The notes under the pieces are model-generated. The model made no database searches. It was not told where the DNA came from and was given only the letters and a program-made list of their open reading frames with translations. Shown in pieces: positions 784-19,212 of a stretch of DNA of 23,937 nt (the stretch's first letter is position 1; every line of letters starts with the position of its first letter). This DNA comes from a virus. The DNA lies in IMG/VR virus record IMGVR_UViG_3300032116_001304, positions 1 through 23,937 of that record; one strand, given 5' to 3'. Both the position numbers and the translations under genes were made by a program.

Positions 784-1260
784 TTATTTTACTCTTATTA
801 CTTCTGTCTTTGGACCATCATCGTCCAACTGAGTTCCTTTTTTAACATATTCCATTGCGTATGGTGCTGACATATGTTTTTTTACGTAAGGTAAAATAAT
901 ATCATTTAATTTCAAAAAAGATTCTTTCGTCCAATATGATATATACGTAGAATCAACATCTTCTTGTTTTGGTAAAATGATTCCAGAATAATTAAAATCA
1001 ATTATTTTTGGATTTCCTAAAACAACAATATCTGAATTATTTTCTATTGGATATACAACACTATAGGTGTTATCGATAATACCTCTTTTCCTAAGTTCTT
1101 TGAAAACATAAGAATGTGACTCTCTTTCAGTATTGTATGGTGCTAAAAAAACACCATCAGAATCTCCTATGAAATAGACAAAATCATACATTGTTCTATC
1201 ATAAACGCTATTAACGTATTCTGGTGATTCTAATAAATAATATTTTTCAAAAGACAACAT
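784..1260 (-). CDS. Unknown phage protein with N-terminal packaging-like motif
   Basis: 158 residues from the ATG at 1258-1260. The first twelve residues, MLSFEKYYLLES, have the shape of a T4-type capsid-targeting peptide: Phe/Tyr-rich, ending in L-L-E before Ser, which fits the (L/I)-x-E consensus of prohead protease gp21. The body mixes beta and alpha segments and ends in a charged tail (DDDGPKTEVIRVK). It lies 9 bases downstream of the DUF7227-like gene on the same strand and 37 bases before the MNIFVLD gene. No catalytic motif is recognisable. The packaging role is inferred only from the N-terminal pattern. Confidence 0.65.
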   Translation of the reverse strand: MLSFEKYYLLESPEYVNSVYDRTMYDFVYFIGDSDGVFLAPYNTERESHSYVFKELRKRGIIDNTYSVVYPIENNSDIVVLGNPKIIDFNYSGIILPKQEDVDSTYISYWTKESFLKLNDIILPYVKKHMSAPYAMEYVKKGTQLDDDGPKTEVIRVK

Positions 1261-1269
1261 TATTTTACT

Positions 1270-2559
1270 TTATCTCCTTTTTTTTGTTTCTTCTGTGAAG
1301 AAATTTTTAAATGATTCGGAATTAATTTCTTTCTGAACAACTGGTTGTTCTACTTCTTGATTAAAATCAGAATCAGATGCTTCATAATTTGGATTAAAAA
1401 CTTCTGGTTTAATCTTTTTAAGATCGTCAACTATAATTTCAAACCCACCATCTGGTTCTAATAATTTACTGTCTGGTTTTTGAAAATCCAAATATTCTCT
1501 TAATTTATCTCTATTGTTTAAAAGATCATTTAAACTTGAAACTCCAAAATAATCCATACAATCTCTTTTAAATTCGTTGGATCCAATATATTTTGGATTT
1601 TTTTGTTTTTTGTTCCATATTATTGACCTTCTTTTTGCTCTGAAAATACTACCCCTTCCTCTTAATGATCCCTTAGCTGTCAATCCAACTATTAAACCAA
1701 TAGGATTTCCGTTTTCATCAAATTGTTTTTCATCATCATCCAAGAATCTTAAATCACTTCCGTCTCCATTTAAAACTTTATATCCCAAATAATGTGTTGG
1801 TAATAAACCACTTTTTTGATAAAAAACATAAGCCACGTTTCCACCGTTCTTTAAAATATCTAATGCTGCTTTTTCGTTTGATGCGCTTCTACTAAAAGTT
1901 TGATGTATTAGTTTATTTTGAGAATACTTTTTATATCGAGGGACTATTTTAGTATAATCGTAAAAAGTAACACCTTTTCCAACTTGCTCTTTAACGAAAT
2001 CTTCCATCTTTTCACCAAAATCGTAATCGGATGTTCCGTTCATACGGATTGCTAATTTTAAATTAAATTCATCTGCAAAATGTTTAAGTAAAACAATATC
2101 TGATTTTAATTTAGTAAAAAATAATTCTGGTTTTAAATGTAGTTCTTGTGCTTTTCTAATTCTTGATTTTAGTTTACCTTCAAGTCGTCTTGGATCACCA
2201 GCGGTATTCAAACAACCTATTCTACAACACCCATCAGAACCAACACATACATCAACACCGCCTTCTTCTGCTGGAGCAATATATAACACACCAGTAATAT
2301 ATTGCGTACCACTTCTTTTATCATGAAGAGATTTTAGCGTTTTAGAATCAGCTAAAACTGATAATAAATTTAATTTTGGTAATTGTTTTTTAAGTTCTTG
2401 TTCAAAAGCAAGTTCTTCTTCGCTTAACTGTAATTTTGCTTCCGATAGTATATTTTGATTACATTCATCACAACATAAAGATTCGTTTAGAGATTCAAAT
2501 TTTAAAACTTTAAACTTAACAGTTTTTATTGTGTTTTCTATTAATAACTTTAAATTCAT
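1270..2559 (-). CDS. DUF7227-like phage protein with N-terminal Cys-rich, packaging-like extension
   Basis: 429 residues from the ATG at 2557-2559; a GTG two codons upstream is an alternative. The core (residues about 64-300) matches what I remember of the phage family DUF7227: NLLSVLADSKTLK, the Cys cluster CVGSDGCCRIGCLNTAG at about 105-121, IRMNGTSDY at about 171-179, FYDYTK at 199-204, NVAYVFY at 241-247 and IVGLTAKGS at 290-298. The biochemical role of that family is unknown to me. The N-terminal 62 residues are extra and contain LIE, LNE-S and LSE-A, all fitting a gp21-type cleavage site, plus CCDEC at 29-33. The same LNES...CCDEC arrangement occurs in the protein at 2843. The C-terminal about 100 residues are acidic and end in FKNFFTEETKKRR. 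Confidence 0.8.
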   Translation of the reverse strand: MNLKLLIENTIKTVKFKVLKFESLNESLCCDECNQNILSEAKLQLSEEELAFEQELKKQLPKLNLLSVLADSKTLKSLHDKRSGTQYITGVLYIAPAEEGGVDVCVGSDGCCRIGCLNTAGDPRRLEGKLKSRIRKAQELHLKPELFFTKLKSDIVLLKHFADEFNLKLAIRMNGTSDYDFGEKMEDFVKEQVGKGVTFYDYTKIVPRYKKYSQNKLIHQTFSRSASNEKAALDILKNGGNVAYVFYQKSGLLPTHYLGYKVLNGDGSDLRFLDDDEKQFDENGNPIGLIVGLTAKGSLRGRGSIFRAKRRSIIWNKKQKNPKYIGSNEFKRDCMDYFGVSSLNDLLNNRDKLREYLDFQKPDSKLLEPDGGFEIIVDDLKKIKPEVFNPNYEASDSDFNQEVEQPVVQKEINSESFKNFFTEETKKRR

Positions 2560-2599
2560 TAACACTATTTATCCAAAACAAATATATATAAATATATTT

Positions 2600-2842: not shown

Positions 2843-3400
2843 ATGAGAACAAAAGATCAAATGGCTTTAGAAGAAGCATATTCTTCAGTTTTAAACGAAT
2901 CACACAAAAAACATTGCTGTGATGAATGCAAAAAGAAAAAGAAAAAAACACCATGTTGTGGGAAGAAAACAAAAGAGGAAGAAGAATTAAAAGAATCTGT
3001 TTTTGCTGATGTTTCCGTTGGTAAAGATTTTATAGAAGCTATGTCGTTTTGGGTGGCTGGTCTTGGGACTGCTGCTGCTGCTGCTGGTGCTGTTGTTGGT
3101 GGGTCAAATCTTTTAAGAGTAATTGCAAAATATAAAGAAAAAAATAACATGATTTCTCTTTTGAATAATCCGGAGATTAAACCATTATATAATGAATTAA
3201 GAGATATTTATAATAAATATAAAGAAACCAAAAATGCTTCACAACTCCAGTCTCCTTATCAGAAAAAATCAAATGAAATAAAGCAAAAGATTTCAGAAAT
3301 AATTGGTATTGAAGCTCATGGTGAAGATTCATCAAAATATCACATGGCTGTAAAAAAAGCATTGGAAGACGAAAATAATAAAACTGAAAATAAAATGTAA
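2843..3400 (+). CDS. Tagged Cys-rich membrane protein, candidate head cargo
   Basis: 185 residues. The N-terminus MRTKDQMALEEAYSSVLNES belongs to the tag family found at 14398-16973. Two (L)-x-E sites fit prohead-protease cleavage: LEE-A at 9-11 and LNE-S at 17-19. Directly behind lies a Lys-rich metal-binding-like cluster, HCCDEC...TPCCGKK (residues 24-42), with four to five Cys that could hold zinc. Residues about 66-95 form one strongly hydrophobic Ala/Gly-rich segment, a likely membrane helix, followed by a charged helical tail to the end. Predicted processing would expose the Cys cluster at the N-terminus. The start follows TAAATATAAT with 2 bases between, the same arrangement as at 6953. 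Function is unknown; packaging and injection are inferred. Confidence 0.75.
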   Translation: MRTKDQMALEEAYSSVLNESHKKHCCDECKKKKKKTPCCGKKTKEEEELKESVFADVSVGKDFIEAMSFWVAGLGTAAAAAGAVVGGSNLLRVIAKYKEKNNMISLLNNPEIKPLYNELRDIYNKYKETKNASQLQSPYQKKSNEIKQKISEIIGIEAHGEDSSKYHMAVKKALEDENNKTENKM

Positions 3401-11157: not shown

Positions 11158-11889
11158 TTAATCCCCAACTCGATTTATCCAAGATGGTGCTTTTTGTGTT
11201 CTGGTAGCTTTCATTGCTTCGAAAGGGTCTTCTTTGATTCCAAGTTTTTTATTCAAATCTTGAATTTTTAACGTTACCACGTTTCTCTCAACTCCAGTTA
11301 CAAGATGACGTTCGGCGTCAAGGTCTGCTTTTTCTTTTTTCCATTTATCAATCTGTGTTTGTTTTACTACGGTCGTATTGTCAGGTGCAAAATTTATTCC
11401 TTTTGAATTTGAAAGATAATGTTCATACTCAAATTCAGTTGCACTAGGAATAATTTTCTTAATTAATTTTTCAAAAAAAGGTTTAAACTTCCTATCAAAA
11501 TCTTGTCTATGTGTCCACATTGAAACCAACATTCTTGCTTTATTTTCTGGATCAATCCAAAGTCTACCTCTAACATATTCTTCTTCTGCATCAAGCCCCA
11601 TATCTAAATTAAAAACATGTCCCATGTTGTCGTGGTACATTATTTTTGTTTGTGATGTGAGAGATGAAGAATCTTTGATCTTAAATGCACTATCAACATG
11701 AAACAGTTTTGGAAGTTTTGAATTTGTTGTTTGGAAAATATAAGAATCAAAATATCTTCGACGGTCTAATTCATATTCAGAAATAATAAAAGTGATAACC
11801 GATTCATCCATTGGAATATTCCTAGTTCCATATCTTATTATGGTTGGACTTTCATTAATCATCTTGAAATATTTTTTAAAATTAAGCAT
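11158..11889 (-). CDS. Unknown protein with N-terminal packaging-like motif
   Basis: 243 residues from the ATG at 11887-11889. The N-terminus MLNFKKYFKMINESPTIIRY has the aromatic, basic shape of a T4-type capsid-targeting peptide and an I-N-E-S site, close in style to MLSFEKYYLLES of the gene at 784. The middle (about 70-130) is beta-rich with YHDNMGHVFNLDMGLDAEEE and GRLWIDPENKARMLVSMWTHRQDF, possibly a compact enzymatic or binding domain; the rest is Lys/Glu helical. No family recognised. The stop is directly adjacent to the tRNA-Val CCA on the opposite strand. Confidence 0.7.
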   Translation of the reverse strand: MLNFKKYFKMINESPTIIRYGTRNIPMDESVITFIISEYELDRRRYFDSYIFQTTNSKLPKLFHVDSAFKIKDSSSLTSQTKIMYHDNMGHVFNLDMGLDAEEEYVRGRLWIDPENKARMLVSMWTHRQDFDRKFKPFFEKLIKKIIPSATEFEYEHYLSNSKGINFAPDNTTVVKQTQIDKWKKEKADLDAERHLVTGVERNVVTLKIQDLNKKLGIKEDPFEAMKATRTQKAPSWINRVGD

Positions 11890-12132: not shown

Positions 12133-13146
12133 ATGAAACTAGCATCAATTGAAATAATCAAAAACATACGCAAACACCCAAACGCAGACTCTTTGGATAT
12201 TGCCGAGGTATTGGGTTGGCAAGTAGTGGTTAAAAGTGGAATACATAAAGAAGGAGATAGTGTTGTGTTTATTACCATTGATAGTATTGTCCCAAAACTC
12301 CCGTGGTCTGAATTTTTAGTTGATCCCAAAAATCCAGATAAACCATTAAGAGTTAAAAATATAAAACTCCGTGGAGAATACTCATCTGGTATTGTTATTC
12401 CTTTATCAGAATTTCCATCACAATTCACAGCTACTTGTGTTGTTGGAGAAGATTTAACTACACTACTTGGTGTTACTAAATACATCAAAGAAACCCCTGC
12501 CAACCTTTCTGGTGAAGACGCAGGATCATTCCCAACGCATTTAATATCCAAGACCGATGAGGATAATGGATTAAATGATCCAGAACTGGTTTCAAAGGTT
12601 TTGGAAGCAGATACTCACATCACAATAACACAAAAGCTGGATGGTAGTAGTGTTACGATTGTAGTTGAAGATGGTGCAATCACTCAAGTATGTAGTAGAA
12701 ATCTTTCAAAGAAAGACACAGAGCAATCATTGTTCTGGAGATGTGCCAGAAAATTAAACATACCCGAAGGTTGGAACGGTGTAATCCAAGGTGAATTAGT
12801 TGGTAATGGAATACAAAAAAATACAATGAAACTTATCGACAATAGAATATTTGTATTCCAAATAAAAACCGATACAGATTACATGGACTATGAAACAATG
12901 GAAAAATTCTGTAAGAATGAACTTCAATGTGACATTGTTCCATTAATTGCAAAATTAGATGTTGCATCTACAATAAAATTGTGGCAGAATCCTCTACAGA
13001 AACTTCAAGAGTTGGCAGATAAACAAAGATACGACAGTGGACAAGTTGGTGAAGGAATAGTAGTTCGTCCATTTTCTTATCCAAGATCATTTGAATCACG
13101 CCGACCATTGGGGTTTAAACTAATCAATAGAAACTATAAAGACTAA
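12133..13146 (+). CDS. RNA ligase with N-terminal OB-like domain (Rnl5/DraRnl-like)
   Basis: 337 residues. Residues about 1-115 form an OB-like domain (RKHPNADSLDIAEVLGWQVV, VVFITIDSIVPK). The C-terminal two thirds carry the nucleotidyltransferase motifs of the RNA ligase family: motif I QKLDGSS with Lys168 as predicted AMP-accepting residue, SRNLSKK (about 188-194), IQGELVG (about 218-224, motif IIIa), FQIKT, EGIVVRP (Glu307, motif IV) and GFKLINRNY with Lys329 (motif V). An N-terminal OB module in front of the ligase core is the arrangement of Deinococcus DraRnl, which seals nicks with a 3' ribonucleotide. In this phage, with nine tRNAs and a second ligase at 22536, repair of cleaved tRNA or RNA is the likely role. 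Confidence 0.9.
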   Translation: MKLASIEIIKNIRKHPNADSLDIAEVLGWQVVVKSGIHKEGDSVVFITIDSIVPKLPWSEFLVDPKNPDKPLRVKNIKLRGEYSSGIVIPLSEFPSQFTATCVVGEDLTTLLGVTKYIKETPANLSGEDAGSFPTHLISKTDEDNGLNDPELVSKVLEADTHITITQKLDGSSVTIVVEDGAITQVCSRNLSKKDTEQSLFWRCARKLNIPEGWNGVIQGELVGNGIQKNTMKLIDNRIFVFQIKTDTDYMDYETMEKFCKNELQCDIVPLIAKLDVASTIKLWQNPLQKLQELADKQRYDSGQVGEGIVVRPFSYPRSFESRRPLGFKLINRNYKD

Positions 13147-14397: not shown

Positions 14398-14802
14398 ATG
14401 AAAAACAAAGATCAAATTCTATTGGAACAAGCATATTCTAAAATTTTAAATGAAAATTTAGGAACCGGATTTCAAATTCAAAAAGGTGGAACTGGTGGTT
14501 CTAACACTAGAACTCTTGATGAAATCCAAATTGGAGATGATGTTTATTCCGCTTCTTATGATGTTGAATTAAGCAGAAGCGTTGAGCCACATGGGACATT
14601 TTATGATGATCCAGAAATAGATATTGTTGGAGTGTGGAAATATGACCCCACAATAGATGATAATATAAAGTTAGATTTGCAAACAATTGATAAAGAAATA
14701 TTAAGTCAAATTAAATCAGCTATTTATGCTGATGTTGATTCTGATATAGATAATGACAGATATGATTTTTATCCAGATGAACCAAACCACGAAGACATAT
14801 AA
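14398..14802 (+). CDS. Tagged cassette protein 1, candidate head cargo
   Basis: 134 residues. N-terminal tag MKNKDQILLEQAYSKILNEN, with L-L-E at 8-10 and L-N-E-N at 17-20. The payload begins with Gly/Thr-rich GTGFQIQKGGTGGSN and continues as an acidic, beta-rich domain (IQIGDDVYSASYDVELSRSV, YDDPEIDIVGVWKYDP) that ends in an Asp-rich tail. No family recognised. The gene is followed at once by the TTGACA promoter of the structured RNA. Confidence 0.75.
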   Translation: MKNKDQILLEQAYSKILNENLGTGFQIQKGGTGGSNTRTLDEIQIGDDVYSASYDVELSRSVEPHGTFYDDPEIDIVGVWKYDPTIDDNIKLDLQTIDKEILSQIKSAIYADVDSDIDNDRYDFYPDEPNHEDI

Positions 14803-14805
14803 TTG

Positions 14806-14834
14806 TTGACATTTTTATAAAATAGATATATAGT
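14806..14834 (+). promoter_or_regulatory. Strong sigma-70-like promoter of the structured RNA
   Basis: TTGACA (14806-14811), 17-base spacer, TATAGT (14829-14834). It begins 3 bases after the stop of the preceding gene. Transcription should start near 14841, exactly where the long pairing of the following RNA begins. Confidence 0.75.
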
Positions 14835-14840
14835 TTTTAT

Positions 14841-15068
14841 AAGAGTTGGTTCCCGATGATCCAATAGGTGGGTGACGATCCACGAACACAAAATCGGAAA
14901 AAGATTTTTGAAATTTGATAGAGTCGGACGGGAATAGTGTGCTGTGCTGTTCTTAAAAAGCTCACCGTTGCGGACCTATCAACCAGACTCGATTAGGCAG
15001 AGGGTAACAAGTAAACTTCGTCCAGCGGGATCACAACTCGGTAGCCAATGAAGAACTTTCTGGTTTTT
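14841..15068 (+). ncRNA. Unassigned structured RNA with closed ends
   Basis: The 292-base gap between two tagged genes has no plausible reading frame but dense pairing. The ends close through GTTGGTT (14845-14851) with AGCCAAT (15043-15049), CCGA (14853-14856) with TCGG (15038-15041), and TGATCC (14857-14862) with GGATCA (15028-15033), leaving a 4-base bulge. Inside are hairpins GTGGG/TCCAC (14868-14883), AAAATC/GATTTT (14890-14908), and a long arm TTGATAG/CTATCAA (14915-14921 with 14976-14982) that continues with GTC/GAC and GACGG/CCGTT and is capped by GAATAG/CTGTTC (14932-14952). GGACG at 14926 could alternatively pair with CGTCC at 15019. T-rich runs at 15064-15078 may end transcription. 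Base composition is more G/C-rich than flanking genes. It does not resemble RNase P, 6S, SRP or tmRNA. Confidence 0.7.
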
Positions 15069-15094
15069 AATTTTTTTATTGTAAGTATATTTGA

Positions 15095-15559
15095 ATGAAA
15101 TCAAAAGATCAAATTTTATTAGAAGAAGCATACAATGAAATTTTAATAGATGAAAAAATTAACTTTAAAGGTGCTTTAACTGCTGCTGCTTTAGCAGCTT
15201 CTAGTTTATTGGGTTCAAATAATGCAAAAGCTGCTGATGTTGATAAACCAGTTCAAGGAATCGAACAATCTCAAAAAATTACAGTAGAGGATTTGATACC
15301 AAGAAAAGAATTCGATCAAGTATTAGATATGATGAGACAAGCTGTTGCTAAAGGAGATTTAAAATCAGCTAAACAAATTTGTGAAGTGGTGCGCACGGAA
15401 TGTCAAGATGCTGCTATGAAAGTGAGAGGCCGCGAACAAATTTTAAAACTTGCTGATATGGAAGGAGAAGCTCTCAACATTTTTCATAATGCATATCTAG
15501 GAGTTGTTAAAACTGGTATGGGTGCTATGGCTAACTCCGCAAGAGCCGCTGCTGAATAA
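15095..15559 (+). CDS. Tagged cassette protein 2 with a buried signal-peptide-like segment
   Basis: 154 residues. Tag MKSKDQILLEEAYNEILIDE (residues 1-20). Directly behind it is a segment with the three parts of a Sec signal peptide: KINFKG (basic), ALTAAALAASSLLG (hydrophobic) and SNNAKA-ADV with an A-x-A cleavage site, at residues about 21-46. The remainder is helical and soluble (DLIPRKEFDQVLDMMRQAVA, VCGR-like Cys pair in ICEVVRTEC, and a C-terminal Ala/Gly helix). Processing at the tag would expose the signal-like segment as a new N-terminus. The same segment could instead be a simple membrane anchor. No enzymatic motif is seen. Confidence 0.75.
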   Translation: MKSKDQILLEEAYNEILIDEKINFKGALTAAALAASSLLGSNNAKAADVDKPVQGIEQSQKITVEDLIPRKEFDQVLDMMRQAVAKGDLKSAKQICEVVRTECQDAAMKVRGREQILKLADMEGEALNIFHNAYLGVVKTGMGAMANSARAAAE

Positions 15560-15567
15560 ATAAATTT

Positions 15568-15999
15568 ATGAAAACAAAAGATCAACAATTATTGGAAGAA
15601 GCATACTTAAAAACTTTATTAGAAGATGAAAAGTTTCAACCAAATGATCCCGAGATGCAAGAGCTTTCAAAAGTTGGTATGGGAGAAGAGTTTCCAGAAG
15701 ATCAAGATCCTCGAAATTTAGAGGATGATAATATTCTTTCACCGGAAGAAAGTCGAGCACAATATGAAGAAATAATGAATGCAGTTAATTCTATTATAGA
15801 TTCAAATGAAAAATTTAAAAACATAGGAAACACTATTGATAATTTCATAGAAAAAAATTTATCTGAAATGGTTTCTAAATTTAAACAAGAACATTCTGGT
15901 TTAGTTGAAGGTGATGTAACAGATGATATTAAAAGCTATTTTGATAAAAAAATTGAACGCATTTTAAAAAATCAATCTAAATTTTTAGCAAATCTTTAA
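15568..15999 (+). CDS. Tagged cassette protein 3, paralogue of the next gene
   Basis: 143 residues. Tag MKTKDQQLLEEAYLKTLLED with L-L-E-D at 17-20, followed by an acidic linker KFQPNDPEMQELSKVGMGEE and FPEDQDPRNLEDD. The first 54 residues differ from those of the gene at 16000 by only five substitutions, with many silent changes. The payload from residue 55 on is an all-helical, Lys/Glu-rich domain (SRAQYEEIMNAVNSIIDSNE, then FIEKNLSEMVSKF) unrelated to the payload of the neighbour. The stop is immediately followed by the next ATG. Confidence 0.75.
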   Translation: MKTKDQQLLEEAYLKTLLEDEKFQPNDPEMQELSKVGMGEEFPEDQDPRNLEDDNILSPEESRAQYEEIMNAVNSIIDSNEKFKNIGNTIDNFIEKNLSEMVSKFKQEHSGLVEGDVTDDIKSYFDKKIERILKNQSKFLANL

Positions 16000-16161
16000 A
16001 TGAAAAGCAAAGATCAACAATTATTGGAAGAAGCATACTTAAAAACTTTATCAGAAAATGAAAAGTTTCAACCCAATGATCCAGAAATGGAAGAACTTTC
16101 AAAAGTTGGTATGGGAGAAGAATTTCCAGAAGATGAAGATCCAAGAAATTTAGAAGATGAT
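15568..16161 (+). repeat. Duplicated leader module of two adjacent tagged genes
   Basis: The segments 15568-15729 and 16000-16161 (about 162 bases, 54 codons) align without gaps. Five residues differ, at positions 3, 18, 20, 31 and 46, and at least eight codons differ silently (for example CCA/CCC, CCT/CCA, CGA/AGA). Similarity stops abruptly after the acidic L-E-D-D motif. Confidence 0.85.
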
Positions 16162-16431
16162 TCAAATCAAGATCTTTCAACATATAATGGATATTATCAT
16201 TATATGATAAAAACCTTTGGAGAGGAAGCGATTTCTTATGCTCGTAAGTACATGGAAAAAGACGAGTATTCTGACAATTTAAGAATGGCTTTTGTTGGAG
16301 ATCCAAAAACAGAAAGTCTTTATAATAAAATAAAAGATCAGGGATGCTGTGGATATGCAGATAACAAAGAAATTCCAACAAATCTTACTAGTGGAAGAAA
16401 AGCATATTTTGGTTATAATTACGGACATTAA
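16000..16431 (+). CDS. Tagged cassette protein 4, same leader, different payload
   Basis: 143 residues, ATG directly after the previous stop. Tag MKSKDQQLLEEAYLKTLSEN with L-S-E-N at 17-20, then the same acidic linker as its neighbour. From residue 55 the payload differs: a compact region with YNGYYHYMIKTFGEEAISYA, RMAFVGDPKTESLYNKIKDQ, a CCGYADN Cys pair and a Gly/Tyr C-terminus YFGYNYGH. That makes two proteins of equal length with one leader and two payloads. Function unknown. Confidence 0.75.
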   Translation: MKSKDQQLLEEAYLKTLSENEKFQPNDPEMEELSKVGMGEEFPEDEDPRNLEDDSNQDLSTYNGYYHYMIKTFGEEAISYARKYMEKDEYSDNLRMAFVGDPKTESLYNKIKDQGCCGYADNKEIPTNLTSGRKAYFGYNYGH

Positions 16432-16434
16432 TTT

Positions 16435-16683
16435 ATGAAAAGCAAAGATCATATTTTATTAGAGACTTTGGTAGAAGACATCTATACCCAACAAACAAAA
16501 GACGAACCTTTGACTAAAGAACAAATGATCGAAGCACAAACTCTTGCTGACTATATTGAAAAAAATATAAATGTAATTAATCCCGAAATGAATTATAAAA
16601 CATTGGCAAATGCAATTAAAATTATATTGAAAGATTTCGGTAGTCATAATATGCCAGCTTTCATAGAAGAAATTCAAAAATGA
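16435..16683 (+). CDS. Tagged cassette protein 5, short
   Basis: 82 residues. Tag MKSKDHILLETLVEDIYTQQ, with L-L-E-T at 8-11 but no L-x-E at 17-19, so it is the most diverged cassette member. The payload is a small helical domain (TKEQMIEAQTLADYIEKNIN, then YKTLANAIKIILKDFG). The stop overlaps the next ATG by 4 bases (ATGA). Function unknown. Confidence 0.7.
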   Translation: MKSKDHILLETLVEDIYTQQTKDEPLTKEQMIEAQTLADYIEKNINVINPEMNYKTLANAIKIILKDFGSHNMPAFIEEIQK

Positions 16684-16973
16684 AAAACAAAGATCAAGTT
16701 TTATTAGAAGAGTTATACCTTAGGATTTTTTCCGAAAGTGAATTTGTTAAAGGGTGGAAAGAAGATCCACTTGGTCTTGATGGAGATCCACTAGGATTGA
16801 AATATAACCCAAGCGTATCTAATGAAGAAGATTCTGGTGTTAATGTTAGGAAAATAGTTCATGACATACTGAATGATATTCAGCCTCATGTTTTTGATCT
16901 TGATAGCGAAACCTATAAAGAAGCAATTAAAACTTTAATTGATAGGTTAAATTCAATTTTACAACGATATTGA
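16680..16973 (+). CDS. Tagged cassette protein 6
   Basis: 97 residues, start overlapping the previous stop. Tag MKNKDQVLLEELYLRIFSES, with L-L-E-E at 8-11 and F-S-E-S at 17-20. Behind it is a short tandem motif EDPLGLDGDPLGLKYNP, where D-P-L-G-L occurs twice, then a helical C-terminus (KIVHDILNDIQPHVFDLDSE, ALKTLIDRL-like). The TTGACA of the tmRNA promoter overlaps its TGA stop region. Function unknown. Confidence 0.7.
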   Translation: MKNKDQVLLEELYLRIFSESEFVKGWKEDPLGLDGDPLGLKYNPSVSNEEDSGVNVRKIVHDILNDIQPHVFDLDSETYKEAIKTLIDRLNSILQRY

Positions 16974-17058: not shown

Positions 17059-17483
17059 GGGGATGAAAGGATTCGACTTTGGATTCTAATTCCACAATGC
17101 ATGTGAAGGTTAATCGATGGCCTTCTAAAAAATCGATTGAAAACTAAATGCAGACGATGATATGTCTGATCTTTTAGCCGAAGCTGAATACATCTTCAAC
17201 AACGCTGACGAGTTCCTCGGTGGCATTGAAGAAGAGTCTTACGCACTCGCCGCTTAAAGACCTAACGGTAATCCTCTAAATCCGTTTTGAATTGCAGAGG
17301 GGTTTGAGTTGTCGGGTAGCTTCAATGTAAAAGTAAATTATCCACGATAACAAATGTCGTTACTATTTGTAGGAAAGTAGATATACTATGATATCCTTAT
17401 AATATCGAAAATATCCAAACATGTGAAGAATTGTGAAATGAAAGTTCATTGGACACGGCTATCGTATGCCGTCATCTCCACCA
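17059..17483 (+). ncRNA. ssrA: tmRNA with an exceptionally long tag
   Basis: About 425 nt. The 5' end GGGGATG pairs with the 3' CATCTCC, including the G3-U pair that identifies alanine, followed by ACCA. The conserved GGATTCGAC follows the acceptor (17069-17077). CACAAT (17093) pairs with ATTGTG (17430) in the long P2 helix. The T-arm is ACGGC/GCCGT with an 8-base loop TATCGTAT, one base longer than usual. The tag frame opens at GCA 17150 after the usual A-rich lead AAACTAAAT and runs 35 codons to TAA at 17255-17257. It begins ADDDMSDLLAEAEY and ends EEESYALAA, the terminal YALAA being the ClpXP-recognised degron type. Tag codons are unusually C/G-ending (TTC, AAC, CTC, GGC, ATC, GAG) for this genome. 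The RNA would rescue stalled ribosomes together with host or phage SmpB; no SmpB gene lies in the window. Confidence 0.95.
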
Positions 17484-17953: not shown

Positions 17954-18361
17954 ATGAAAGAAAAATATATTACTAAAGAATGCAAATATCACGGTGAAAC
18001 AGAATTTATTCTAGAACCAAGTAGAAATTCTTATAGATGTAAAAAATGTAGATCTAACAATGTTTCTAAAAGAAGAAGAAAAGTTAAAGAAAAATTAGTT
18101 AATGTTTTTGGTGGCAAATGTATATTATGTAATTATTCAAAATATATAGGAGCATTAGACTTTCATCATTTAAACCCAAATGAAAAAGAATATGGGCTTG
18201 GTGGTAAAGGATTAACAAAAGGATATAAAACTCTCCTAGAAGAAGCTAAAAAATGTATATTGTTATGTGCTAACTGTCATCGAGAAGTCGAATCGGGGAT
18301 TGTTACCATAGACGATAAAAATTTGAATAAAAACAAAAAATTTATTGAAAATACAAAATAA
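17954..18361 (+). CDS. HNH endonuclease inside the tRNA cluster
   Basis: 135 residues. An N-terminal Cys/His zinc-binding segment (CKYHGE...YRCKKCRSNN, residues about 11-36) is followed by a basic linker and an HNH nuclease domain: CILCNYSKY, then LDFHHLNP with the catalytic-type His pair, and CILLCANCHREVESG closing with the second C-x-x-C and the metal-binding His. Proteins of this type cut DNA and commonly act as homing endonucleases in phages. It sits between tRNA-Asn (ending 17899) and tRNA-Gly (18368) with no intron signs, so it is free-standing. It probably promotes its own spread, together with flanking tRNA genes, into related phages lacking it. Confidence 0.88.
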   Translation: MKEKYITKECKYHGETEFILEPSRNSYRCKKCRSNNVSKRRRKVKEKLVNVFGGKCILCNYSKYIGALDFHHLNPNEKEYGLGGKGLTKGYKTLLEEAKKCILLCANCHREVESGIVTIDDKNLNKNKKFIENTK

Positions 18362-18624: not shown

Positions 18625-19212
18625 ATGAATGTTAAAAGAAATACTAAAGAATGTCCAAAGTGTGGATTAAAAATCGCATTATCGTCTTTTCATAAACATA
18701 TTAATGGCAAAAGATGTGGAAAACCATATGAAAAATTTGATGGTAATAATTGTGTTTATTGTGATCTTTTAATTTTAAATAAAGGATCTTTAATTTCTCA
18801 TATGAAATGTTGCAAGAAAAATCCAAATGCAAACAAAAGACATAGATCACCAAAAGCTGGTGGGCAGACAGGTTCGGTAGCATGGAACAAAGGAAAAAAA
18901 TTTGAAAACGAAACAATAGATAGAATTATACAACAAATAGAATCTGGTGATTATGTAAAGTACGGTGAAGCACATATAAGAAGAAGAATTAAAAAATATT
19001 TAATTCATAAACATGGTCATAAATGTATGATGTGTAATTTATCAGAATGGCAAGGTTTAAAAATACCTTTAGTTTCTGATCATATTGATGGTAATTCTCA
19101 AAATAACGAAATATCAAATTTTAGAATAATTTGTAATAATTGTGATTCTATATTACCAACATTTAAAGCAAAAAATATTGGAAAGGGTAGAAAAAAAAGA
19201 TATAAAAGTTAG
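18625..19212 (+). CDS. HNH endonuclease with N-terminal zinc fingers
   Basis: 195 residues. The N-terminus holds two or three zinc-finger-like units: CPKCGLKI...FHKHINGKRC (residues about 9-31) and CVYCDLLI...SHMKCC (about 43-64). A basic linker RHRSPKAGGQTG and the motif VAWNKGKKF follow; W-N-K-G-K is common in phage homing nucleases. The HNH domain is at about 130-180: CMMCNLSEW, LVSDHIDGNSQNN and FRIICNNCDSILPTF, with C-x-x-C pairs and an Asp-His active-site strand. It is probably a DNA-cutting homing enzyme whose finger array confers site specificity. It lies after tRNA-Thr and before the terminator at 19238; no intron signs. Confidence 0.88.
   Translation: MNVKRNTKECPKCGLKIALSSFHKHINGKRCGKPYEKFDGNNCVYCDLLILNKGSLISHMKCCKKNPNANKRHRSPKAGGQTGSVAWNKGKKFENETIDRIIQQIESGDYVKYGEAHIRRRIKKYLIHKHGHKCMMCNLSEWQGLKIPLVSDHIDGNSQNNEISNFRIICNNCDSILPTFKAKNIGKGRKKRYKS

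What the first reader, a model, noticed from the sequence alone, without database searches (positions are those of the whole stretch)
14398..16973. Array of tagged genes: a candidate head-packaged, injected protein set with exchangeable payloads
Six tandem genes (14398, 15095, 15568, 16000, 16435, 16680) and one at 2843 begin M-(K/R)-x-K-D-(Q/H)-x-x-L-E, mostly with a second x-L-x-E near residues 16-19; 10249 carries a variant. Behind the tag the payloads are unrelated. T4 internal proteins carry a short N-terminal capsid-targeting peptide cut by protease gp21 after (L/I)-x-E; these tags hold L-L-E at 8-10 and often L-x-E at 17-19. I infer a set of proteins packaged into the head through a common tag, trimmed on maturation and possibly delivered with the DNA. 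Minus-strand genes 784, 1270 and 11158 start with looser versions (LLE-S, LIE-N, INE-S).
Basis: partly seen in the sequence, partly recalled or inferred. Interest (0 to 1): 0.9.

Follow-up and report, generated by a model that had tools for sequence, protein, structure and literature searches.

The report
Phage cargo-tag for head-packaged proteins
A short, shared N-terminal address label sits on many otherwise unrelated proteins of uncultured T4-like phages, and the genomic evidence says it sends them into the assembling phage head, probably for injection into the host with the DNA, so the label can be used to find large numbers of unknown phage effector candidates.

Summary
Seven window genes carry M(K/R)xKD(Q/H)xxLE, separated by >20 bits from background starts. 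In IMG/VR the tag fronts at least 169 distinct proteins in 93 unrelated payload clusters. It is a protein-level signal: synonymous sites are saturated and upstream DNA identity is at chance.

Four results support a T4-type capsid-targeting propeptide: (1) gp21 protease in 8/8 tag-bearing contigs of 131 kb or more. (2) In seven contigs a tagged gene directly follows gp21 in the prohead operon, with five different proteins in that slot. (3) Natural tag swaps: a kinase-like payload carries this tag in one phage and a T4-style MKSFKQYIKE tag in six others, joined at the same residue; window gene 784 (MLSFEKYYLLE|SPE) has a relative with a variant of this tag (MNRDHKLLEEAYRQVRLFE|SPE). (4) L-x-E sites at residues 8-10 and 17-19, like T4's 10- to 19-residue propeptides.

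The array lies at a variable locus (0-6 tagged genes) beside a conserved RNA, tmRNA and tRNAs, as T4 ipI lies beside tRNAs. Packaging, cleavage and injection are inferred. The tag lacks T4's aromatic residues 4 and 7, so it works like, but is not, the T4 sequence. Novelty: new variant of a known kind.

The parts
14398..14802 (+). tagged gene, 134 aa: MKNKDQILLE|QAYSKILNE|NLG; unknown payload
   Evidence: relative in L062 75% identical with the same tag
15095..15559 (+). tagged gene, 154 aa: MKSKDQILLEEAYNEILIDE|KINFKGALTAAALAASSLLGSNNAKA|AD; signal-peptide-like segment right behind the tag
15568..15999 (+). tagged gene, 143 aa; residues 1-55 shared with 16000, rest different
16000..16431 (+). 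tagged gene, 143 aa; 96.5% identical orthologue in G022
16435..16683 (+). tagged gene, 82 aa; orthologues in G022, G020, G032
16680..16973 (+). tagged gene, 97 aa; orthologues in G029, G020, G025, G032
2843..3400 (+). tagged gene outside the array, 185 aa: MRTKDQMALEEAYSSVLNE|SHKK; Cys/Lys-rich stretch and an Ala-rich hydrophobic segment
10249..10959 (+). variant tag MKQDDINLFEAYAQVV...EQLDE|AGV; conserved single-copy gene in six relatives, where LxE also precedes the payload
784..1260 (-). T4-style tag MLSFEKYYLLE|SPEY; its relative in L063 carries a KDQ-type tag MNRDHKLLEEAYRQVRLFE|SPEI
1270..2565 (-). GP88-domain protein with a T4-style start MNLKLLIE|N; another GP88-domain protein elsewhere (L024) carries the KDQ tag
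11158..11889 (-). T4-style start MLNFKKYFKMINE|SPTI; no relative found
14911..15064 (+). conserved non-coding element (probable structured RNA) inside the array; anchors the locus in 21 IMG/VR contigs
17059..17483 (+). tmRNA gene that bounds the array on the right, followed by a tRNA cluster
12133..13146 (+). RNA ligase gene, conserved left flank of the array

Best explanation
The shared start M(K/R)xKDQxLLExxYxxI(L)xE is a propeptide that works like the T4 capsid-targeting sequence. It binds the prohead core (gp22-type scaffold) so that unrelated passenger proteins are built into the head. The gp21-type prohead protease then cuts after L-x-E at residue 10 and/or 19, frees the passenger, and the passenger is probably ejected into the host with the DNA to act early (anti-defence, host takeover). 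The window's six-gene array is a hypervariable cassette locus for such passengers, in a T4-like myovirus distantly related to cyanophages. Shown: the tag, its breadth, its protein-level conservation, its adjacency to gp21 in relatives, its interchange with T4-style tags, and the locus variability. Inferred: packaging, cleavage and injection.
For: 169 distinct tagged proteins in 93 payload clusters, including GNAT, CCA/polyA nucleotidyltransferase, NUDIX, GP88 and weak PARP/ART matches. Tag codons 2-13 pN/pS 0.24 with pS 0.78, while upstream DNA is at chance identity. gp21 (PF03420) in 8/8 contigs of 131 kb or more. Tagged genes directly after gp21, before gp22/gp23, in seven contigs with five different proteins; the two compared share only the tag. 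Tag swaps at a fixed junction: MKNKDQILLENLYTE|MAYPV vs MKSFKQYIKE|MAYPV in six contigs, MATFSEYLFE|EYPQ, and MKQVRLSQFLSE|APLP in cultured phage XacN1; MLSFEKYYLLE|SPE vs MNRDHKLLEEAYRQVRLFE|SPE; cl10. Second LxE starting at 15-19 in 39/91 cluster representatives vs 4.1 expected. T4 IPs: MKTYQEFIAE|A and MKTFKEFTSTTTPVSTITE|A; T4 propeptides are 10-19 residues, residues 8 and 10 govern processing, site L/I-x-E (PMC9026906). gp23 of two relatives keeps IEE|(A/S)G near residue 60, and gp22 is full of LxE. T4 ipI lies beside the tRNA cluster.
Against: No virion proteomics exists for any tagged phage here. The window has no gp21 (fragment). T4 targeting rests on residues 4 and 7 (PMC9026906; Y4 or F4, and F7), and the tag has K4 and I7. 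P1' after E10 is mostly E/N/Q, whereas the T4 IP sites read here have A, so cleavage at E10 itself is uncertain; in the swaps the junction falls at residue 15 or 19. In most large relatives the tagged genes lie far from the head operon. Most payloads have no recognisable function.
Confidence: 0.83

Rival explanations
1. The tag recruits proteins to the prohead core, but the passengers act only in assembly (core filler, size control, protease or scaffold regulation) and are degraded or stay in the head rather than being injected.
For: Tagged genes sit between gp21 and gp22 in seven contigs. One tagged protein shares a 27-residue stretch with a gp67-position core protein of G001. T4 gp67/gp68/gp22 are core proteins cut by gp21 (PMC9026906).
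Against: Payloads include enzymes of cellular type (NUDIX, GNAT, nucleotidyltransferase, ART-like), change from phage to phage and are not essential-looking (0-6 at the same locus).
Confidence: 0.12
2. The tag is a DNA-level element (promoter, ribosome-binding or recombination hook) that happens to be translated.
For: Some neighbouring copies share about 60 bp at 81%, and 15568/16000 look like a recent duplication joined to a new tail.
Against: Across 79 payload clusters synonymous sites are saturated, amino acids are conserved, and the 60 bp upstream match no better than composition predicts.
Confidence: 0.02
3. The genes are one fast-diverging paralogous family whose N-terminus is merely the slowest part, not a sorting signal.
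For: Small orphan proteins dominate; some share longer N-terminal stretches.
Against: The same payload occurs behind different tags with the junction at the same residue, and payloads belong to unrelated known folds.
Confidence: 0.02
4. The tag addresses another phage structure (tail, baseplate, or an intracellular compartment) rather than the prohead core.
For: The localisation is not measured by any tool here; this follows only from the absence of data.
Against: Interchange with T4-style capsid-targeting peptides, gp21 adjacency, LxE sites.
Confidence: 0.04

Closest known systems
Bacteriophage T4 internal proteins IPI, IPII, IPIII with their capsid-targeting sequence (CTS)
   Same: Short N-terminal peptide starting M-K, hydrophobic residue 7-8, L/I-x-E ending at residue 10 or 19, many unrelated passengers, polymorphic locus next to tRNA genes, gp21-type protease in the same phages.
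   Different: Different tag sequence (KDQxLLExxY instead of (Y/F)xEF), often two LxE sites in one tag, far more passengers (93 clusters across the group, against three IPs plus Alt in T4), enzymes among them, and tagged genes in the gp21-gp22 slot of some relatives.
T4 Alt (head-packaged ADP-ribosyltransferase)
   Same: Enzyme with a processed N-terminal propeptide; ART/PARP-like sequences occur here behind a KDQ tag (L068) and behind a T4-style tag in the head operon (L034).
   Different: PARP/ART matches are weak (E 0.0004 and 0.003, below Pfam cut-offs); no full-length Alt relative seen.
phiKZ/SPN3US inner-body ejection proteins
   Same: Large sets of head proteins trimmed by a gp21-related protease; redundant cut sites in propeptides (PMC9026906).
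   Different: phiKZ motif S/A-x-E, no short shared tag described in the text read; these phages are T4-type (Gp23, T4_CASP, Peptidase_S77 families).
Polyvalent proteins (ART-PolyVal and others)
   Same: Weak ART-PolyVal match in one payload; predicted delivery with DNA (own knowledge).
   Different: Those are long multi-domain proteins; here mostly single small payloads carry a removable tag.

Membership tests
T4-type CTS / internal-protein system | One short N-terminal peptide shared by otherwise unrelated proteins | tested here: met
   169 proteins, 93 payload clusters; information falls off after residue 20
T4-type CTS / internal-protein system | L/I-x-E cleavage motif ending at residue 10 and/or 19 | tested here: met
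   E10 in 93/101 unbiased starts; second site in 39/91 vs 4.1 expected
T4-type CTS / internal-protein system | gp21-family prohead protease in the same phage | tested here: met
   In relatives: 8/8 contigs of 131 kb or more, adjacent to the tag in seven contigs. Not visible in the 24-kb window itself.
T4-type CTS / internal-protein system | Functional equivalence with known CTS | tested here: inconclusive
   Supported by natural swap only: same payload behind KDQ tag or MKSFKQYIKE-type tag; no experiment
T4 CTS sequence family (MKT(Y/F)xEF...) | Aromatic residues 4 and 7, the positions that direct targeting in T4 | tested here: not met
   K4 (100%) and mostly I7 (67%). So it is not filed as the T4 sequence itself.
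T4-type CTS / internal-protein system | Protein is inside the virion and its N-terminus is trimmed | not testable with these tools
   needs virion mass spectrometry
T4-type CTS / internal-protein system | Protein enters the host with the DNA | not testable with these tools
   needs infection experiment
T4 Alt | ADP-ribosyltransferase domain in a tagged head protein | tested here: inconclusive
   PARP E 0.0004 and 0.003, below curated cut-offs

The most novel reading that the evidence does not exclude
In a subclass (window 15095 and proteins in G010, G012, G015/L063, G025; four unrelated payload clusters) the capsid tag is followed, right after the second L-x-E, by a Sec-signal-like segment, often with an AxA-type end. 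The prohead protease would then unmask a signal peptide, so that a protein carried in the head and injected into the host is exported by the host's own Sec machinery to the envelope, for instance for instant superinfection exclusion: a two-step address label.
Probability: 0.3. Interest if true: 0.8.

Novelty: new variant of a known kind. Interest (0 to 1): 0.72.

Why it matters
T4's few internal proteins are a textbook case, and it is an open question how widely T4-like phages carry pre-made effectors in the head. A tag readable from sequence turns this into a search. It already lists 93 payload clusters, nearly all unknown, that can be tested as injected anti-defence or takeover proteins. The natural tag swaps suggest that the address label is modular and offer new tags for loading foreign proteins into phage heads.

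Tried and rejected
Tag alone by tblastn against 50,697 cultured phages: no match, so no cultured phage with proteome data could be used; the window's structural protein and gp23 point only to distant cyanophage relatives. Text search for the tag in 5.39 million papers: none. PHROGs/Pfam on window payloads: nothing solid. Structure models of the kinase-like payload (pLDDT 49) and of gene 784 (66) were too poor to interpret. Untagged relatives of 15095 that would start at the signal peptide: none found. DNA-element and single-family explanations rejected. The Repoila 1994 paper on T-even polymorphism is not held.

Full report
What is there. The window is the whole of a 23,937-bp IMG/VR record, a fragment of a T4-type phage: it encodes RnlA-type and other RNA ligases, a cyanophage-type virion structural protein, Hsp20, tRNAs and a tmRNA. 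Seven ORFs (2843, 14398, 15095, 15568, 16000, 16435, 16680) start M(K/R)xKD(Q/H)xxLE. On a tag profile they score 32-50 bits, while almost all of 8,564 candidate starts in seven contigs score below zero. Its statement that all payloads are unrelated needs one correction: 15568 and 16000 share residues 1-55 and then nothing.

How wide is it. A back-translated pattern found 95 stretches in IMG/VR, and a wider scan of the fetched DNA gave 169 distinct tagged proteins in 93 payload clusters. Among 101 starts M(K/R)x(K/R)D(Q/H/T/E/I/V), chosen without requiring LLE or Y, E10 is present in 93 and Y13 in 91. A reversed pattern gave no hit in 22 records. Recognisable payloads include GNAT acetyltransferases, a CCA/polyA nucleotidyltransferase (3e-23), a NUDIX hydrolase (6e-19), GP88 (1e-17) and weak PARP/ART matches.

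Protein signal, not DNA element. Taking one gene per payload cluster (79), tag codons 2-13 differ at 78% of synonymous but 19% of non-synonymous sites. The sixty bases upstream are identical no more often than composition predicts, apart from a slight A-rich rise before the start. The search pattern constrained some amino acids but no synonymous choice, so the synonymous saturation is not an artefact of the search; the low non-synonymous value partly is.

Link to the prohead. All eight tag-bearing contigs of at least 131 kb hold the gp21 family Peptidase_S77. In seven contigs a tagged gene (MKKKDQILLE...) follows gp21 directly, before the gp67-like, T4_CASP scaffold and Gp23 genes. Five different proteins occupy that slot (178, 186, 86, 301 and 141 aa); the 178- and 186-aa ones, compared directly, share only the first 21 residues. 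In two of these contigs two further short-tag genes (MLKDQKLIAEAY..., MNKDQKNLAENY...) lie just upstream of gp21. In the larger genomes the tagged genes are mostly elsewhere, as T4's ip genes are.

Natural tag swaps. A kinase-like payload begins MKNKDQILLENLYTE|MAYPVSF in one contig and MKSFKQYIKE|MAYPVSF in six others (83-88% identical payload). The DNA similarity begins at the payload's ATG. A more distant relative reads MATFSEYLFE|EYPQ, and that of cultured Xanthomonas phage XacN1 reads MKQVRLSQFLSE|APLP. Window gene 784 reads MLSFEKYYLLE|SPEYVNSVYDRTMYDF, and its relative in L063 (GTG start) reads MNRDHKLLEEAYRQVRLFE|SPEIVGDLYDRTKYDF, a KDQ-type tag one residue shorter. A third family alternates between the KDQ tag and MKFDLLVES. 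T4's own internal proteins start MKTYQEFIAE|A and MKTFKEFTSTTTPVSTITE|A. T4 propeptides are 10-19 residues long, residues 8 and 10 govern processing, and gp21 cuts after L/I-x-E (PMC9026906). The KDQ tag places L-x-E at 8-10, and in 39 of 91 cluster representatives a second one starting at 15-19, against 4.1 expected. T4-style starts are themselves about 3- to 8-fold over expectation in the large relatives, and [LI]xE is enriched in N-termini genome-wide (ratio 1.68; controls 0.85-1.32).

The locus. In seven relatives the array position is conserved between the 13525 gene or its neighbours and a tmRNA/tRNA cluster, with 0 to 6 tagged genes when the window is counted. A conserved non-coding element at 14911-15064 anchors the locus in 21 contigs independently of the tag. 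The first tagged gene downstream of it starts 149-158 bp after a fixed point in six contigs, with several different payloads; in four others the tmRNA follows at +145 instead. T4 ipI likewise flanks the tRNA cluster. Rao and Black describe T-even internal proteins as a highly diverse set of defence proteins with only a conserved CTS (PMC3012670). So the principle is known; the tag, its scale and the gp21-adjacent slot are what is new here, as far as these searches reach.

Mechanism and limits. Most likely the tag binds the prohead core, the gp21-type protease releases the passenger, and the passenger leaves with the DNA. The sequence evidence supports targeting and a propeptide; cleavage position and injection are inferred. 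E10 is followed mostly by E, N or Q rather than A, so the second site, or the swap junction, may be the working one. T4's aromatic residues 4 and 7 are absent, so I do not file the tag as the T4 CTS itself, only as a peptide that works like it.

Hidden signal peptides. Window 15095 and proteins in four other contigs, from four unrelated clusters, have a basic, Ala-rich hydrophobic, signal-peptide-like stretch immediately behind the second L-x-E. No untagged relative starting at that stretch was found. This is a lead, not a result.

Noticed in passing
window 14911-15064: Conserved non-coding element of about 150-200 nt inside the tagged array, no Rfam match at E <= 0.1, predicted structure with a few compensatory changes, present in 21 IMG/VR contigs next to tmRNA or tagged genes.
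   Followed up: partly
window 17059-17483: Phage-encoded tmRNA (Rfam RF00023, E 1e-31) that ARAGORN missed, beside a cluster of tRNA genes.
   Followed up: no
G001 and G007 (L107-L110), gp21 gene: Prohead protease open frame of 614 aa split by about 360 residues; the insert starts CITSSASILCEDGWKN near the GELNHP motif, which looks like an intein inside the protease.
   Followed up: no
L034:10379-11185: PARP/ART-like protein (weak match) with a T4-style tag MSRFEQLVELILE|MSAYHGS in the head-gene operon, an Alt-like candidate.
   Followed up: partly
window 15095-15559; L063:4259-4681, L202:7939-8625, L181:17414-17830, L186:756-1157: Signal-peptide-like segments directly behind the capsid tag.
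   Followed up: partly
large relatives G001-G005: A second class of T4-style N-terminal tags (MxFxxLVExxL, MNKFDLLVSTILTES and similar) occurs on several proteins per genome, about 3- to 8-fold over expectation.
   Followed up: partly
window 17954-18361 and 18625-19212: Two HNH-endonuclease-like ORFs (own reading of the sequence) lie within the tRNA cluster, as T4 segB does.
   Followed up: no
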